A stretch of DNA of 64,000 bases, from NCBI GenBank assembly GCA_015491865.1, contig WFVD01000026.1:1-64000 (forward strand), in the 5' to 3' direction. Positions 278-54,712 of the stretch are shown here, piece by piece; position 1 is the first letter of the stretch, and every line of letters begins with the position of its first letter. The position numbers and the translations under genes are program-made. The notes beneath the pieces are model-generated. The model was given only the letters and a program-made list of their open reading frames with translations. It searched no databases and was not told the DNA's origin. The stretch comes from Gammaproteobacteria bacterium (GTDB lineage Bacteria > Pseudomonadota > Gammaproteobacteria > SZUA-140).

Positions 278-1111
278 TTATTGATCCTTTTCTGATTTTT
301 TGATGGTGTTATCTTCAATTAACAGCTTCATCTGTGAAATGGCTATCTGGTTCAGACGTGTCAGTCGTTCATTCTGTGGCAATCCTTCATTGATGAAAAC
401 GGTGTTCAGATTTTCCATATTGGCCAGACAGACCAGTTGGGCAGTATTGGCATAATCACGGATATTGCCCCTTGTATCCGGGTTTTCCTTTCGCCATTGG
501 GCTGCTGTTTTGCCAAACAGGGCCACATTCAGCACATCCGCCTCACTGGCATAAACAAAATTGATTTGCTCTTTGGTCAAATGTTCAGGAATCAGATTTT
601 CTTTAATGGCGTCAGTATGAATTCGATAATTTATTTTTGTAATATTTCGACGAATATCCCAGCCAAGTTGTTCCTTTTCCTGGTCTTTTAGCTGTTGAAA
701 CTCTTTAATGAGGTATATCTTGAATTCGGCGCTTATCCACATTGCAAATTCGAACGCAATGTCTTTATGCGCATACGTTCCGCCATAACGTCCCGCTTTG
801 GCAGTTACGCCAATGGCATTGGTTTTGGATACCCACTCTTTAACGCTGATTTTGTAACTATTTAATCCGGCAGAGCTTTTAATTATGGCGAATTCGCCAT
901 AATTAAAATCAGGGTTGTGTATTCGCTCCCATATACCCAGGTATTCAACGGTGTTTCGATTTCTGAGCCAGTCAGATATGAAAAATTCACCACCCTTTGC
1001 TTTCAACATATCGGTAAGTGACATGTAGTCATTTGCTGTGACTGTGATATGTTCACCCTGTATCTCCCTGTTGTTTAGCCGATGTTTCGTTAGACTTATG
1101 TCCCATAGCAA
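278..1111 (-). CDS. KilA-N domain protein embedded between cas1 and cas2-3
   Basis: A 277-residue protein with a KilA-N DNA-binding domain over about residues 18-145. The family landmarks are NDYMSLTDM, WLRNRNTVEYLGIWERIHNP, TNAIGVTAKAGRYGGTYAHK and DIAFEFAMWISAEFKIYL. The C-terminal half is helical and has no motif I know. KilA-N domains are typical of phage and large-DNA-virus proteins, and no biochemical role is assigned here. The TTG start at 1111 is chosen because the domain's first strand (around IQGEHITV) lies upstream of the first ATG (1024), and an AGGT sits about 9 bases before the TTG; ATG 1024 would clip the domain. With TTG the gene overlaps the cas1 3' end by 59 bases. Sampled 60-base lines counted by eye are 28-45% GC against 50-67% in cas1, which suggests recent acquisition. 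Confidence 0.85.
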   Translation of the reverse strand: MLWDISLTKHRLNNREIQGEHITVTANDYMSLTDMLKAKGGEFFISDWLRNRNTVEYLGIWERIHNPDFNYGEFAIIKSSAGLNSYKISVKEWVSKTNAIGVTAKAGRYGGTYAHKDIAFEFAMWISAEFKIYLIKEFQQLKDQEKEQLGWDIRRNITKINYRIHTDAIKENLIPEHLTKEQINFVYASEADVLNVALFGKTAAQWRKENPDTRGNIRDYANTAQLVCLANMENLNTVFINEGLPQNERLTRLNQIAISQMKLLIEDNTIKKSEKDQ

Positions 1112-2033
1112 TATTTTTTACCTGGTCGAACATAAAATCCAGCGCTTTGTGGTCGGTAAAGGCTTGCAGACACTGCTGGCGAAATTCCTGCTCGGTGGCA
1201 TTTTCTTTGGCGCAGATGAATGACCAGGGCAGCACCAGCGTGTCCTTGATTAGATCAGCCACGTCAAATACCAACGCGCCGCGGCGGGTCTTGCCGTGCA
1301 TGACGGCGAAGCCGTGGGGAATGCCCAGCACCCATAGCGTGGTCGCGGCGAGGCCATAGGCCAGATAGTTGCCATGATTGAGAAAGTCGTTGGCGCTATC
1401 GACGGATTCTCTGGTGCGAACAAAATCGCCGTGTTTGGTTCGGTTGGCGGCGATTTTGTACAGCCGTTTGGTCAGTTCGGCTTCTATTTGTAATAATTTG
1501 CTGACTTTCTGTGCTTGTTCGATGCCAGCCAGCGTGTGACCCAGCACTGAAGCGATGTCCTCATCCTGCGAATGAAAGCCTGCGTCGATTAAATTCCGGT
1601 CTTTTGCCCAGACCGTTTGCATAAACCGGATACGTGCGGTTTGAAAGTGTTTGGCCGCCTCAAGCCGTTTCTGCTCGTCGAACCAGAACCCCATCCAGCC
1701 CTGTATATATTCGGTAGGCCGATATTCGCTTTGCGGCGACAGCCACTCTACTTCGGTTGCAGCCAACAGGGGTGTCCCCCCTCCGCCGCAAAAACCTATT
1801 AACACTCCTGCTGATGACAACATACGAACAGCCGCCTGGGTTAGCGATGTACCCGTGCCCAGTAAGATGACGGTTGTATTGGCGATAGGGATATTCCAGT
1901 ACTGGTTATCTTCTTTCGCCTCCGTTAAATAGAGTACGCGCCCATCCTTTTGCATCACGCGGCATTTTTCGAGGTAATAAATATTGGCGCGCTTGGAATG
2001 CAGTATTGCTTTTAGATCAGTTAGTTGTTCCAT
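1053..2033 (-). CDS. cas1f: CRISPR-associated endonuclease Cas1, subtype I-F
   Basis: 326 residues, the usual length for Cas1 of subtype I-F. Cas1 integrates new spacers together with Cas2 (here the Cas2-3 fusion encoded two genes downstream). Family landmarks: ILHSKRANIYYLEKCRV near the start, YWNIPIANTTVILLGTGTS, FCGGGGTPL and SPQSEYRPTEY. The metal-site residues appear intact: Glu184 in QIEAEL, His246 in MHGKTRRG, and Asp257/Asp260 in FDVADL. The start at 2033 fits the family N-terminus, but its ribosome-binding site is weak (GAAGAAG). A 13-codon upstream frame with a much better site overlaps this start. In most I-F loci cas1 is followed directly by cas2-3; here a KilA-N gene intervenes. 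Confidence 0.95.
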   Translation of the reverse strand: MEQLTDLKAILHSKRANIYYLEKCRVMQKDGRVLYLTEAKEDNQYWNIPIANTTVILLGTGTSLTQAAVRMLSSAGVLIGFCGGGGTPLLAATEVEWLSPQSEYRPTEYIQGWMGFWFDEQKRLEAAKHFQTARIRFMQTVWAKDRNLIDAGFHSQDEDIASVLGHTLAGIEQAQKVSKLLQIEAELTKRLYKIAANRTKHGDFVRTRESVDSANDFLNHGNYLAYGLAATTLWVLGIPHGFAVMHGKTRRGALVFDVADLIKDTLVLPWSFICAKENATEQEFRQQCLQAFTDHKALDFMFDQVKNIAMGHKSNETSAKQQGDTG

Positions 2034-7078: not shown

Positions 7079-9295
7079 TTAAGAGAACTCCATCGCATCG
7101 ACATCAATGGACCAGCGCACCTTTTTTGCCAGCGGCAGTTGTGAAAGTTGTGCTAGCCAGCGGTGCAGAAAGTGATGTAGTTGTGCGCGCTGATCGGCCT
7201 GGATTAGTAGTTGTGCGCGATAACGTCCCGCTCGTCTCTCCATGGCAGCGGGGATCGGTCCTAGCAGCTCGGCGGCATTGGGTAGTTGAACTCCTGCTTC
7301 GCGTGCGGCGCTAAGAAATTCATTCGGCATCTCACGGCTGCTTGCCTCGGCGCGCAGCAGCGCGATGTGGCGGAATGGCGGCAGTAGCGCCTGCGAGCGT
7401 TCAGTTAACAGCTCGCTGGCAAAACGGCTGTAATCGTGAGCGATGATGCCGTTAAGCAGCGGATGCTCCGGGTGGTGGGTCTGGATCAACACCTCGCCGC
7501 GGCTCTCACCGCGTCCCGCCCGCCCGGCTACCTGAATGATCAGCTGTCCCATCCGCTCACTGGCGCGGAAGTCCAGCCCAAAGAGCCCTTGGTCGGCATC
7601 GAGTATCCCCACCAGGGTGACGTTGGGAAGGTGGTGCCCCTTGGCCAGCATCTGGGTGCCGAGGAGGATCTGGCCACGCCCCCCTTCGACCTGTTTAAGC
7701 AGCATCTGTAACGACCCTTTTCGGCGGGTGCTATCACGGTCGATGCGGATGATCTCATGGTCTGGAAACCGTTCGTCAAGAGCCTCGGCGGCACGCTCGG
7801 TTCCCTGCCCCAGTGGGCGTAGATCGACACTGCCGCAGCCGGGGCACTGGTTGTCGATGCGGCGCTGACTGTCGCAGTGGTGGCAGCGCAGCAGGCGCTG
7901 TGACTTGTGCAGAATCAGGTGGGCATCACAGCGCTGACAGTGGGCGAGCCAGCCGCAGTCGTGACAGATCAATGTGGGCGCATAGCCGCGGCGGTTGAGG
8001 AATAGCAACACCTGCTGCCCGTTGTCGAGGTGGTGCTGGATCGCCTGCAACATCGCCGTTGAAAACCCTTCGTTCAGTTTCTGCTGGCGCAGATCCAGCA
8101 GTCGGATCTGTGGGTGTGCGGCGTTGCCGGCGCGCTCTGGCAGGATGATCTGTTGAAAGCGCCCCTGGCGGGCGTTGTGCAGGCTCTCCAGTGAGGGGGT
8201 GGCGGAACCGAGCACAACGGGAATGGCCGCCTGTTGCGCTCGTCGAATCGCCACATCGCGTGCGTGGTAGCGAAACCCCTCCTGCTGTTTGAATGAGAGG
8301 TCGTGCTCCTCATCGATGAGGATAATGCCGAGGTTTTTTATCGGCGTGAAGACTGCCGAACGGGTACCGATGATGATCGGTGCATCCCCCGCCCTTGCCT
8401 GTAACCAGCTGTTAAGCCGCGCCCTGTCGTTAAGGGCGGAGTGCAGCAGTGCGATGGGCACTGCAAAGCGGGCCTGAAAGCGTTTTAGCAGCTGCGGTGT
8501 CAGGCCGATCTCGGGTACCAGAATCAGCGCCTGTTTTCCCTCCTGCAGCACTTTTTCTACTGCGCTGAAGTAGACCTCGGTTTTGCCGCTGCCGGTAACG
8601 CCATCAAGCAGCAGCGTCTGAAAGCGGCCGAGGGCGTGGTGGATTGCGTCGCAGGCGGCGTGCTGTGCAGCGTTGAGTGGCGGGGCGCTGCCGCTCTCGG
8701 TCGCCCTGGTGAGCAGGGGGGTCTGCTGCTGGATCTCAACCCACCCTTTATCGAGCAGATGACGCATGATGGCGCGCCAGTTCTCAAACTGTAGATCGAG
8801 TTCATGGGCGCTAAGCGCTTTTTGCGATGCCTGCAGCAGTGCCAGCAGTGCGCGCTGACGGGGCGCACGTTTCAGCGTGGTGGGGTCGATGGCGCTCCCG
8901 GCCTCAGTGAGTGACCACACCTTTTCACCTGTCACACGGGCGGGCTCGCCCTGGCGTAGCAGGGTCGGCAGGGTGGCTGAAAGCACTTCGCCAATGGGGT
9001 AGTGGTAGTAACGGCTGGCCCACTGTGCCAGCGACTGAATCGCAGGCGAGAGGAGCGGTTCATGGTCGAGCAGCTCCAGTACAGGCTTTAGGCGTGCGCG
9101 GTCGATACGGCTCTCATCTGCAAGCGCGACCACTATGCCGATCTTTTCGCTGCGACCAAACGGAATACGCACCCGCATGCCGGGGGCGATCTGCGCTGCT
9201 GAGTGGCCGTCGGGCAGTCGATAGTCGAAGGTTTGCGGCAGTGGCGAAGGGATAGCGACCTGTAAGACTCTGGGGAAGGCGCTGACTGTTTGCAT
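7079..9295 (-). CDS. priA: Primosomal replication restart helicase PriA
   Basis: 738 residues, standard length. An N-terminal 3'-OH/fork-binding domain (about 1-110) is followed by a superfamily 2 helicase core with Walker A GVTGSGKTE at 232-240 and a DEEH motif (ILIDEEHDLSFKQ). The zinc-binding cysteine region has paired CxxC motifs (CHDCGW, CQRCDA, CHHCDS, CPGCGS), and the QVAGRAGRG motif VI is intact. PriA reloads the replisome at collapsed forks. Its upstream region holds four DnaA-box matches, which is suggestive for a replication gene. Confidence 0.98.
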   Translation of the reverse strand: MQTVSAFPRVLQVAIPSPLPQTFDYRLPDGHSAAQIAPGMRVRIPFGRSEKIGIVVALADESRIDRARLKPVLELLDHEPLLSPAIQSLAQWASRYYHYPIGEVLSATLPTLLRQGEPARVTGEKVWSLTEAGSAIDPTTLKRAPRQRALLALLQASQKALSAHELDLQFENWRAIMRHLLDKGWVEIQQQTPLLTRATESGSAPPLNAAQHAACDAIHHALGRFQTLLLDGVTGSGKTEVYFSAVEKVLQEGKQALILVPEIGLTPQLLKRFQARFAVPIALLHSALNDRARLNSWLQARAGDAPIIIGTRSAVFTPIKNLGIILIDEEHDLSFKQQEGFRYHARDVAIRRAQQAAIPVVLGSATPSLESLHNARQGRFQQIILPERAGNAAHPQIRLLDLRQQKLNEGFSTAMLQAIQHHLDNGQQVLLFLNRRGYAPTLICHDCGWLAHCQRCDAHLILHKSQRLLRCHHCDSQRRIDNQCPGCGSVDLRPLGQGTERAAEALDERFPDHEIIRIDRDSTRRKGSLQMLLKQVEGGRGQILLGTQMLAKGHHLPNVTLVGILDADQGLFGLDFRASERMGQLIIQVAGRAGRGESRGEVLIQTHHPEHPLLNGIIAHDYSRFASELLTERSQALLPPFRHIALLRAEASSREMPNEFLSAAREAGVQLPNAAELLGPIPAAMERRAGRYRAQLLIQADQRAQLHHFLHRWLAQLSQLPLAKKVRWSIDVDAMEFS

Positions 9296-9418
9296 GGCGC
9301 GGACTCTACCATGTTCGTCGTCCGCTGCCCACGACTCAGTATGGCTGGATTACCATCGGAATCTTACGAGGAATCTAGTAAAAACCTGTAACTCATTGTG
9401 GCAAAAGAAGATTAACGA

Positions 9419-9631
9419 TTATCCACAAAAGCTGTGGATAACTCTGTGGAAGGATTGGGGTCATCGCGGCGAAAGCCTCGTTTTTATTGACTTTGTGTTA
9501 AATTGATCAAATTTTAAGCGGCAAGATTAATTCATTAAAAAACAATTGGTTAACATTTTTATTAAATTTTATGACAGGTTGGACGGGGCTGCTGTGGAAA
9601 AAAACCGGCTGAAAATAATAGCTGTGTATAA
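9419..9631. other. DnaA-box cluster flanking an AT-rich block (candidate oriC or DnaA-control site)
   Basis: This fills the 487-base gap between priA and hemJ. Two perfect TTATCCACA boxes face each other at 9419-9427 (plus) and 9433-9441 (minus). A TTATACACA box lies at 9623-9631 (minus) and a TTTTCCACA at 9593-9601 (minus); all four fit the DnaA consensus TTWTNCACA. Between the pairs, 9481-9570 is about 80% A+T by hand count, resembling a duplex-unwinding element. GATC sites are scarce (one in the AT block), unlike enterobacterial oriC. No gene is credible here. Whether it is the chromosomal origin, a DnaA titration site or priA regulation cannot be told from this window. Confidence 0.55.
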
Positions 9632-9782: not shown

Positions 9783-10208
9783 TCAGAACGGTTTGACGAT
9801 GACCAGGATAATGATGGCGACAAGCAGCAGCACGGGCAGCTCATTGAACCAGCGATAGAATAGGTGGCTATGCCGGTTATGGTCCAGTTTGAATGCCTTC
9901 ACGATCCTGCCGCAGTAGAAGTGGTAGCCAATCAGTACCGCCACCATCATCAGTTTGAGGTGGAGCCATCCCATCTCGGCGTAAAGCGCCCAGCCGTAGT
10001 CAAACAATAACCAGAGGCCAAAGATCGTGGTGAGCATGGCGCCAGGGGTCATGATGCCGAAGTAGAGCTTGCGTTCCATCACCTTAAAGCGTTCGTTACT
10101 GATCGCATCACTGCTCATCGCGTGATAGACAAAGAGCCGCGGCAGATAGAATAGCGCTGCAAACCAGGTGACCATGAAGATGATATGGAAGGCTTTGACC
10201 CACAGCAT
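9783..10208 (-). CDS. hemJ: Protoporphyrinogen IX oxidase HemJ
   Basis: 141 residues with four predicted membrane helices, starting MLWVKAFHIIFMVTWFAALF and containing LPRLFVYHA, the N-terminal signature of HemJ (TIGR00701 type). The early conserved histidine is at residue 8. HemJ oxidises protoporphyrinogen IX to protoporphyrin IX in bacteria lacking HemG or HemY. Another haem gene, hemB, lies about 10 kb to the right. The single-gene setting suggests its own transcript. Confidence 0.93.
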   Translation of the reverse strand: MLWVKAFHIIFMVTWFAALFYLPRLFVYHAMSSDAISNERFKVMERKLYFGIMTPGAMLTTIFGLWLLFDYGWALYAEMGWLHLKLMMVAVLIGYHFYCGRIVKAFKLDHNRHSHLFYRWFNELPVLLLVAIIILVIVKPF

Positions 10209-19097: not shown

Positions 19098-20465
19098 ATG
19101 AAAATCGTATTGCTGGGAGCACCAGGCTCTGGAAAGGGCACGCAGGCAAAATTGTTAACAACCCAATATGGGGTACCTCAAATCTCAACCGGTGACCTGC
19201 TGCGTGCAGCAGTCAAGGCGGGATCCCTATTGGGTGTACAGGCCAAAGCGGCGATGGACGCAGGGCGTCTGGTTTCCGACGAAATTGTGCTGGCGATGAT
19301 CAAGGAGCGGCTTGCGCAGCCTGATGCCAGAAACGGCTTTATTCTGGACGGCTTTCCGCGCAATATCCCGCAGGCGGAAGCGCTGGATATCATGCTCGAC
19401 AAGCTGGACCAGGCGCTGCAGGGCGCGCTGTTGATCGATGTCGATTTTGATTCCCTGATTCAGCGCCTGACCGGCCGTCGCACCTGTGAATCGTGTGGTC
19501 AGATGTACAATGTCTACACCTCTCCCCCCAAACTGGATGATCAGTGCGATAAATGTGGCGGAAATCTGCACCATCGCGCAGATGATAATGAAGAGACCAT
19601 TGGTAACCGCTTACGTGTCTACGAAGCGCAGACCGCACCGTTGATCGACTACTACAAGGGGCAGAATCGACTTCGCACTATCCAGGGGATAGGTGATATT
19701 GAAGATATTTTTAGTGCAGTTTGCAAGGTGGTCGATGAGTTGCCGGAGGTGGTTGAATTTTCGTTACCCGGCACTAAAGAGACTGTTGAAGCGACCCCGC
19801 CTGAAGAGATGCCAGCGGTGATTGATGCCGAAGAGACTGCCTCCCCAGTGAAGGCGAAACCAGCGAAGCCTAAAGAAGAAAAACCGGCTAGCAGGGTTGC
19901 CCCTGAAAAGAAAACTGCATCTAAAAAGGCGTCGCCCAAAAAAAAGAGTGTGACTAAAAAACGTGCAACGGTAAAAAAAGTTGCCCCAAAAAAGAAGGCT
20001 GCCAATAAGAAAAAGGTCGCTATTAAAAAGTCGGCAGCAAAAAAGAGAAGTGCGACAAAAAAAGCGGTGACCAGAAAGAAGGCGGTCGCAAAGAAAAAGG
20101 CCACTGTTAAAAAGGGAGTGGCTAAAAAGAAGGTGGTGACAAAAAAAGCAGCTGTAAAGAAGAAGGTCGCCAGCAAGAAAAAGGCTGCCACTAAAAAAGC
20201 GGCGGTTAAAAAGAGAAGCGTGACAAAGAAAGTGGCCACAAAAAAAGCGGTGACCAGAAAGAAGGCGGTTGCAAAGAAAAAGATAGTAACAAAGAAAAAA
20301 TCGGCGGCAAAAAAGGGATCGCTAAAAAAGGCTGTTGTTAAAAAGAAGCGAACGGTACAAAAGCCGACAACTAAAAAGGCTGTGAGCAAAAAGAAGGCGG
20401 CGGTAAAAAAGCGCGTGGTGAAAAAGAAAACCGTGGCAAAGAGAAAAAGCGCCAGGCGCAGATAA
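19098..20465 (+). CDS. adk: Adenylate kinase fused to a histone H1-like lysine/alanine tail
   Basis: 455 residues, about twice the normal 215. Residues 1-215 are a complete long-form adenylate kinase: P-loop GAPGSGKGT at 7-15, NMP-binding STGDLLRAA, and a zinc-type LID with Cys130, Cys133, Cys150 and Cys153, then DDNEETIGNRLRVYE. It makes 2 ADP from ATP and AMP. Residues 219-250 are an acidic, proline-rich linker. From about 251 to the end there is a lysine/alanine/valine/threonine tail of KK-containing repeats (KKAVTRKKAVAKKKA), like bacterial H1 proteins of the AlgP/Hc1 kind. The frame is unbroken and there is no internal stop. A tail of this kind would bind DNA or RNA without sequence specificity, or polyphosphate; that is inference. 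Confidence 0.95.
   Translation: MKIVLLGAPGSGKGTQAKLLTTQYGVPQISTGDLLRAAVKAGSLLGVQAKAAMDAGRLVSDEIVLAMIKERLAQPDARNGFILDGFPRNIPQAEALDIMLDKLDQALQGALLIDVDFDSLIQRLTGRRTCESCGQMYNVYTSPPKLDDQCDKCGGNLHHRADDNEETIGNRLRVYEAQTAPLIDYYKGQNRLRTIQGIGDIEDIFSAVCKVVDELPEVVEFSLPGTKETVEATPPEEMPAVIDAEETASPVKAKPAKPKEEKPASRVAPEKKTASKKASPKKKSVTKKRATVKKVAPKKKAANKKKVAIKKSAAKKRSATKKAVTRKKAVAKKKATVKKGVAKKKVVTKKAAVKKKVASKKKAATKKAAVKKRSVTKKVATKKAVTRKKAVAKKKIVTKKKSAAKKGSLKKAVVKKKRTVQKPTTKKAVSKKKAAVKKRVVKKKTVAKRKSARRR
19850..20465 (+). repeat. Degenerate codon-level repeats encoding the H1-like tail of Adk
   Basis: AAA/AAG-rich tandem repeats of mixed 9-30 base units encode the basic tail. For example, the block for KKAVTRKKAVAKKK appears near 20060 and again near 20245 with nearly identical bases. 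Such DNA is prone to slippage, so tail length may vary between strains. Confidence 0.75.
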
Positions 20466-54511: not shown

Positions 54512-54712
54512 ATGCAGAAGCTTCTGATCATTGTCGGTGCGGTATTGCTGATCATCGGTCTGCTATGGCCGTGGATCGGCAAGCTGGGGCTGGGCAGGCT
54601 GCCTGGCGATATCGCCGTCGAGAAGGAGGGGTTTAATTTCTATTTCCCGTTGATGACGTCGGTTATCATAAGTATCATCTTATCGCTGCTCTTCTGGCTG
54701 TTTCGTAAATAG
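54512..54712 (+). CDS. DUF2905 family small membrane protein
   Basis: 66 residues with two membrane helices and the family motif GLGRLPGDIAVEKEGFNFYFP between them. The function is unknown. It lies 23 bases after rpiA on the same strand and is probably cotranscribed. Confidence 0.9.
   Translation: MQKLLIIVGAVLLIIGLLWPWIGKLGLGRLPGDIAVEKEGFNFYFPLMTSVIISIILSLLFWLFRK

What the first reader, a model, noticed from the sequence alone, without database searches (positions are those of the whole stretch)
9419..9631. Four DnaA boxes around an AT-rich block next to priA
Two opposed perfect TTATCCACA boxes, then ~90 bases of about 80% A+T, then two further consensus boxes on the minus strand, with no gene between priA and hemJ. 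This is the layout of an origin: boxes beside an unwinding element. GATC is scarce, so no SeqA/Dam system is implied. Alternatives are a DnaA titration or reactivation site, or DnaA control of priA.
Basis: partly seen in the sequence, partly recalled or inferred. Interest (0 to 1): 0.6.

Follow-up and report, generated by a model that had tools for sequence, protein, structure and literature searches.

The report
DARS-like DnaA-recharging site beside priA
The DnaA boxes beside priA are not the chromosome's replication origin; they match a rigid, widely conserved DNA element of the DARS kind, which in E. coli recharges the replication initiator DnaA with ATP, and it recurs at this spot in many families of gammaproteobacteria far from E. 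coli.

Summary
The boxes are real. They are best explained as a DARS (DnaA-reactivating sequence), not an origin. The GC-skew minimum lies at dnaA-dnaN on another contig; the contig with this site has steady positive skew. A DARS1/DARS2 consensus fits this site with 0 mismatches; datA has 4, oriC 8. Anchored on box II, relatives share a Fis consensus at -78, an IHF consensus near -110 and a DnaA box at -187 to -192; the A+T-rich "unwinding element" is the Fis/IHF stretch. A DARS core occurs in 303 of 369 sampled genomes of the class (reversed pattern: 0). In 31 of 70 genomes, nearly all from different families, it lies upstream of priA, always in the same orientation. This genome has a second copy between polA and gspC, plus Fis, both IHF subunits and Hda. 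In five single-contig genomes the two copies flank dnaA on opposite sides. The order core-Fis-IHF-distal box differs from E. coli DARS2 (core-IHF-Fis-box V). Biochemical activity is inferred, not shown.

The parts
9419..9427 (+). DnaA box I of the DARS-like core (TTATCCACA)
   Evidence: Perfect consensus; opposed to box II with a 5-bp gap, as in E. coli DARS1 and DARS2
9433..9441 (-). DnaA box II of the core (TTATCCACA); reference point for the offsets given here
   Evidence: Perfect consensus; nearly invariant in 53 relatives
9445..9453 (-).
   Evidence: 3 bp beyond box II, same direction, as in DARS1 and DARS2; the letters TCCACA are 91-100% conserved in relatives
9505..9519 (-). Predicted Fis site GCTTAAAATTTGATC
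   Evidence: Exact match to GNNYANNNNNTRNNC at offset -78; 24 of 53 relatives match exactly at -78 or -77, and only 2 exact matches fall at all other offsets together
9540..9552 (-). Predicted IHF site TAACCAATTGTTT (one mismatch to YAANNNNTTGATW)
   Evidence: Offset -111; 44 matches with at most one mismatch at -109 to -111 among 53 relatives
9623..9631 (-). Distal DnaA box (TTATACACA)
   Evidence: Offset -190; 37 R boxes at -187 to -192 among 53 relatives
9593..9601 (-). Extra DnaA box (TTTTCCACA), specific to this lineage
   Evidence: Found at this offset only here and in the nearest relative
9481..9575 (.). A+T-rich arm (80%) that holds the predicted Fis and IHF sites
7079..9295 (-). priA, neighbouring gene, start codon on the core side
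   Evidence: NCBIfam NF004067 and TIGR00595 above cut-off
9783..10208 (-). hemJ, neighbouring gene on the distal side
   Evidence: NCBIfam TIGR00701 above cut-off

Best explanation
A composite DARS (DnaA-reactivating sequence). ADP-DnaA binds boxes I, II and III; the molecules on the opposed boxes I and II meet head to head through their AAA+ domains and let go of ADP; apo-DnaA leaves and takes up ATP. Fis at about -78 and IHF at about -110 bend the A+T-rich arm and fold the distal DnaA box towards the core, which would time or gate the exchange. With a second copy elsewhere on the chromosome it would rebuild ATP-DnaA for the next initiation at oriC beside dnaA. Shown here: box geometry, conserved site positions, distribution, the second copy, and the presence of DnaA, Hda, IHF and Fis genes. 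Inferred from E. coli: nucleotide exchange, actual binding of Fis and IHF, and timing.
For: Core geometry identical to E. coli DARS1 and DARS2, 0 mismatches to a shared consensus, against 4 in datA, 8 in oriC and 7 in the E. coli priA region. Core in 303 of 369 genomes of the class, reversed pattern in none. Upstream of priA in 31 of 70 sampled genomes, always in one orientation. Fixed Fis, IHF and distal-box offsets in 53 relatives, also at many copies not beside priA. Second copy in this genome with an IHF-like site at -110 and an R box at -180. Two copies on opposite sides of dnaA in five of five single-contig genomes examined. Fis, IHF-alpha, IHF-beta and Hda genes present.
Against: No biochemical or genetic test. 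The order of Fis and IHF sites and the direction of the distal box differ from E. coli DARS2. Box III and the IHF site of the window itself are imperfect. DiaA, which stimulates DARS assembly in E. coli, was not searched. A role in controlling priA could add to the conservation at this place.
Confidence: 0.85

Rival explanations
1. It is the chromosomal origin oriC, or a second origin: DnaA boxes beside an A+T-rich unwinding element.
For: Boxes around an 80% A+T stretch without a gene.
Against: Skew minimum at dnaA-dnaN on C8 with its own boxes; steady positive skew on C26. The core geometry is that of DARS and is absent from E. coli oriC and from this genome's dnaA-dnaN cluster. The A+T-rich stretch is accounted for by conserved Fis and IHF consensus sites. 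Most genomes with the core beside priA or elsewhere carry more than one copy.
Confidence: 0.03
2. A DnaA-controlled promoter of priA: DnaA bound at the core represses or activates the replication-restart helicase gene.
For: The core lies 10-520 bp from priA in 29 of the 31 genomes with a priA-linked core. DnaA represses uvrB from the promoter that overlaps DARS1 in E. coli (PMC6015884). A conserved motif resembling GACAAnnnnTTAGC lies between the core and priA.
Against: In G082 and G064 the core is 1.2 and 1.8 kb from priA, in G082 with another ORF between. The same module is found away from priA in many genomes, including a second copy here. A simple promoter operator would not need the 190-bp layout. 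This does not exclude control of priA as an added role.
Confidence: 0.08
3. A datA-like site (IHF-dependent hydrolysis of DnaA-bound ATP) or a plain titration site for DnaA.
For: A DnaA box, an IHF site and further boxes in a row resemble the general plan of datA; consensus boxes would also hold DnaA.
Against: The best place in the E. coli datA region has 4 mismatches to the core, against 0 for DARS1, DARS2 and this site. Mere titration does not call for fixed spacing or for Fis and IHF sites.
Confidence: 0.06

Closest known systems
E. coli DARS2 (upstream of mutH)
   Same: Three-box core with identical spacing and directions; IHF and Fis sites on the same side of the core; a further DnaA box about 190-197 bp from box II
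   Different: In DARS2, in the same frame, IHF sites are at -83 and -99, Fis at -137 and the box at -197 points the other way; here Fis is at -78, IHF at about -110 and the distal box at -190. Different genomic neighbours.
E. coli DARS1 (upstream of uvrB)
   Same: Same three-box core, 0 mismatches to the shared consensus; upstream of a DNA-maintenance gene
   Different: No R box at -190 and no IHF or Fis consensus at the offsets found here
E. coli datA
   Same: DnaA boxes combined with an IHF site
   Different: Lacks the DARS core geometry
E. coli oriC
   Same: DnaA boxes, A+T-rich stretch, IHF and Fis sites
   Different: No core geometry in oriC; this site is not at the skew minimum or beside dnaA

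Membership tests
DARS (DnaA-reactivating sequence) | Core of three DnaA boxes, I and II opposed, III beside II, with the DARS1/DARS2 spacing | tested here: met
   0 mismatches to the consensus shared with DARS1 and DARS2; gaps 5 and 3 bp
DARS (DnaA-reactivating sequence) | Stimulates release of ADP from ADP-DnaA, depending on boxes I and II | not testable with these tools
   Needs purified proteins
DARS2 subtype | IHF and Fis sites at fixed places beside the core | tested here: met
   Positional peaks at about -110 and -78 in relatives; binding itself not tested
DARS2 subtype | E. coli order core-IHF-Fis-box V and location by mutH | tested here: not met
   Order is core-Fis-IHF-distal box, distal box reversed, location by priA
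DARS (DnaA-reactivating sequence) | Host has the DnaA cycle: Hda, IHF and Fis | tested here: met
   Hda above cut-off; Fis, IHF-alpha and IHF-beta above cut-offs
oriC | Lies at the GC-skew minimum, usually beside dnaA | tested here: not met
   Minimum at C8:54,611 by dnaA-dnaN
datA | datA arrangement of DnaA boxes around an IHF site; promotes hydrolysis of DnaA-bound ATP | tested here: inconclusive
   The datA region lacks the DARS core, but datA's own spacing was not modelled against this site and hydrolysis cannot be tested here

The most novel reading that the evidence does not exclude
This is the common, perhaps ancestral, form of DARS: a rigid core-Fis-IHF-distal-box module of about 215 bp, often in two copies on opposite chromosome arms, one of them often upstream of priA. 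E. coli DARS1 and DARS2 would be derived versions. Similar cores also occur in some families of the phylum outside this class, so regulated recharging of DnaA would be older and wider than stated, and in many lineages physically tied to the replication-restart gene.
Probability: 0.5. Interest if true: 0.75.

Novelty: new variant of a known kind. Interest (0 to 1): 0.62.

Why it matters
The literature read here describes the DARS2 core in E. coli and related gammaproteobacteria at the E. coli location (PMC4245941, PMC8682772) and DARS-like sequences by uvrB and mutH in Vibrio cholerae (PMC6090056). Finding the core in most sampled genomes of the class, with a strict composite layout and a recurrent place upstream of priA, makes DnaA reactivation testable in bacteria where little beyond oriC is known, and gives a large comparison set for what Fis, IHF and the distal box do. 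It also warns that origin finders based on boxes plus A+T-rich DNA can pick DARS sites.

Tried and rejected
Origin: rejected on skew and the position of dnaA. The box at 9593 as part of the conserved unit: only in the nearest relative. The other DnaA-box clusters of this genome at C18:91.8 kb and C19:25.2 kb as further DARS copies: they lack the core geometry. A genome-wide uniqueness test in E. coli K-12 was not possible (record not held); instead the DARS1, DARS2, datA, priA and oriC regions were compared directly, and two sampled genomes with E. coli-like DARS1 and DARS2 sequences (G491, G497) had exactly two matches each. Literature searches for a DARS or DnaA boxes upstream of priA found no description of this; the held library lacks most subscription papers, including the original DARS paper of 2009. 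Match lists of the genome searches were cut, so the counts 31 of 70 and copies per genome rest on the listed matches only.

Full report
WHAT IS THERE. The window is contig C26:1-64000 of a 2.54 Mb genome in 31 contigs. Its closest priA relatives are MAGs labelled Chromatiales bacterium HyVt-459 (96% protein identity) and Thiotrichaceae bacterium NORP103 (82%). Between priA (7079-9295, -) and hemJ (9783-10208, -) lie perfect DnaA boxes at 9419 (+) and 9433 (-), boxes at 9593 (-) and 9623 (-), and an 80% A+T stretch at 9481-9575. The opposed pair is unique in the genome.

NOT AN ORIGIN. dnaA is on contig C8, followed by dnaN. The cumulative GC skew of C8 has its minimum at 54,611, in the dnaA-dnaN region, where there is another cluster of boxes. 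C26 has positive skew almost throughout, with no switch at the priA gap. Only these two contigs were profiled.

CONSERVATION UPSTREAM OF priA. In about 55 of 80 priA loci from other gammaproteobacterial genomes (records labelled Chromatiales, Methylococcaceae, Piscirickettsiaceae and others) the opposed pair lies upstream of priA with the same 5-bp gap, usually with a third box 3 bp further on, and often with a DnaA box 187-192 bp away. A few have about 177 bp, roughly one helical turn less. Anchored on box II, 53 sequences show three positional peaks: exact Fis consensus at -78/-77 in 24 (2 exact matches at all other offsets together); IHF consensus with at most one mismatch at -109 to -111, 44 matches; R box at -187 to -192, 37 matches. 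For IHF, an exact match somewhere in the arm is found in 20 of 53, against 2% of shuffled arms.

IDENTITY OF THE CORE. E. coli DARS1 (TTATCCACTATTCCTGTGGATAACCATGTGTA) and DARS2 (TTATTCACCTTTTCTGTGGATAGAGTTGTGAA) have the same three boxes and gaps as the window (TTATCCACAAAAGCTGTGGATAACTCTGTGGA). One consensus fits all three with 0 mismatches; the best places in the E. coli datA, oriC and priA regions have 4, 8 and 7. [quoted passage not shown] They also show that the IHF and Fis sites and their positions matter for DARS2 (PMC4245941).

DISTRIBUTION. At up to 3 mismatches the core is in 303 of 369 genomes of the class, with none for the reversed pattern in any. In a second sample, almost one genome per family, the listed matches could be compared with the place of priA in 70 genomes. 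In 31 the core lies within 2 kb upstream of priA, always on the strand opposite to priA; a 32nd, at 2.8 kb and in the other orientation, is in a genome with many copies and is not counted. Of 76 genomes with listed matches, 45 have two or more separate copies. The same Fis, IHF and distal-box plan is seen in many copies not beside priA. A looser core pattern also hits some families of the phylum outside the class.

SECOND COPY AND ARMS. This genome has a second core at C8:214293 (1 mismatch), between the polA neighbourhood and gspC, with an IHF-like site at -110 and a DnaA box at -180. In five single-contig genomes with two listed copies (G019, G034, G132, G080, G106) the copies lie on opposite sides of dnaA: -249 and +999 kb; +253 and -977 kb; +114 and -530 kb; +1031 and -997 kb; -250 and +621 kb. 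Taking dnaA as the origin there is an assumption, and five of five has a chance of about 3% if arms were random. E. coli DARS1 and DARS2 also lie on opposite replichores (PMC4585315).

MACHINERY. The genome has Fis (downstream of a dusB-like gene), IHF-beta (downstream of an rpsA-like gene), IHF-alpha (after a pheT-like gene) and Hda above its curated cut-off. Hda implies that ADP-DnaA is made (established for E. coli), which is what a DARS recharges. DiaA was not searched.

DIFFERENCES FROM E. COLI. In DARS2, measured in the same frame, IHF sites are at -83 and -99, Fis at -137 and the intact box at -197 in the opposite direction. Here the order is Fis, IHF, distal box. So by its core it has the anatomy of a DARS, but it is not a copy of DARS2; the functional criterion, ADP release, could not be tested.

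MECHANISM. Most likely ADP-DnaA on the core exchanges its nucleotide; Fis and IHF bend the arm; the distal box, folded back by IHF, supplies or gates DnaA. The first step is carried over from E. coli; the role of the distal box is inference. Control of priA may coexist, as DnaA repression of uvrB does at DARS1 (PMC6015884). But the module also sits away from priA, in G082 with an ORF in between and in many genomes at other genes, so priA control cannot be its general reason.

NOVELTY. The core and its likely action are known from E. coli. What I did not find described is the place upstream of priA, the order Fis-IHF-distal box at fixed offsets, and the spread over most of the class. Absence from the held papers is weak evidence of newness.

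Noticed in passing
L021:14293-14560 (genome C8:214293-214560): Second DARS-like core of this genome, between a small ORF next to polA and gspC, with an IHF-like site and two further DnaA boxes.
   Followed up: yes
L001:1791-1834 (genome C8:54374-54417): Probable oriC: three DnaA boxes between dnaA and dnaN in A+T-rich DNA, at the GC-skew minimum of the contig.
   Followed up: partly
window 9380-9400 (minus strand): A motif resembling GACAAnnnnTTAGC is conserved between the core and priA at about +43 to +54 from box II in many relatives; no explanation found (promoter part or further protein site).
   Followed up: partly
window 19098-20465: Adenylate kinase ORF with a long C-terminal tail of Lys/Ala-rich, histone-H1-like repeats; unusual fusion or read-through, not examined.
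   Followed up: no
window 278-2033: A Cas1-like ORF (1053-2033) overlapping a KilA-N-like ORF (278-1111) at the start of the contig; names by eye only.
   Followed up: no
genomes G041 and G400: Some genomes carry many DARS-like cores (8 and 6 matches) instead of one or two.
   Followed up: no
genomes G382, G388, G391, G410, G418 and relatives: Perfect DARS-like cores in families of the same phylum but outside this class; neighbours and full layout not examined.
   Followed up: no
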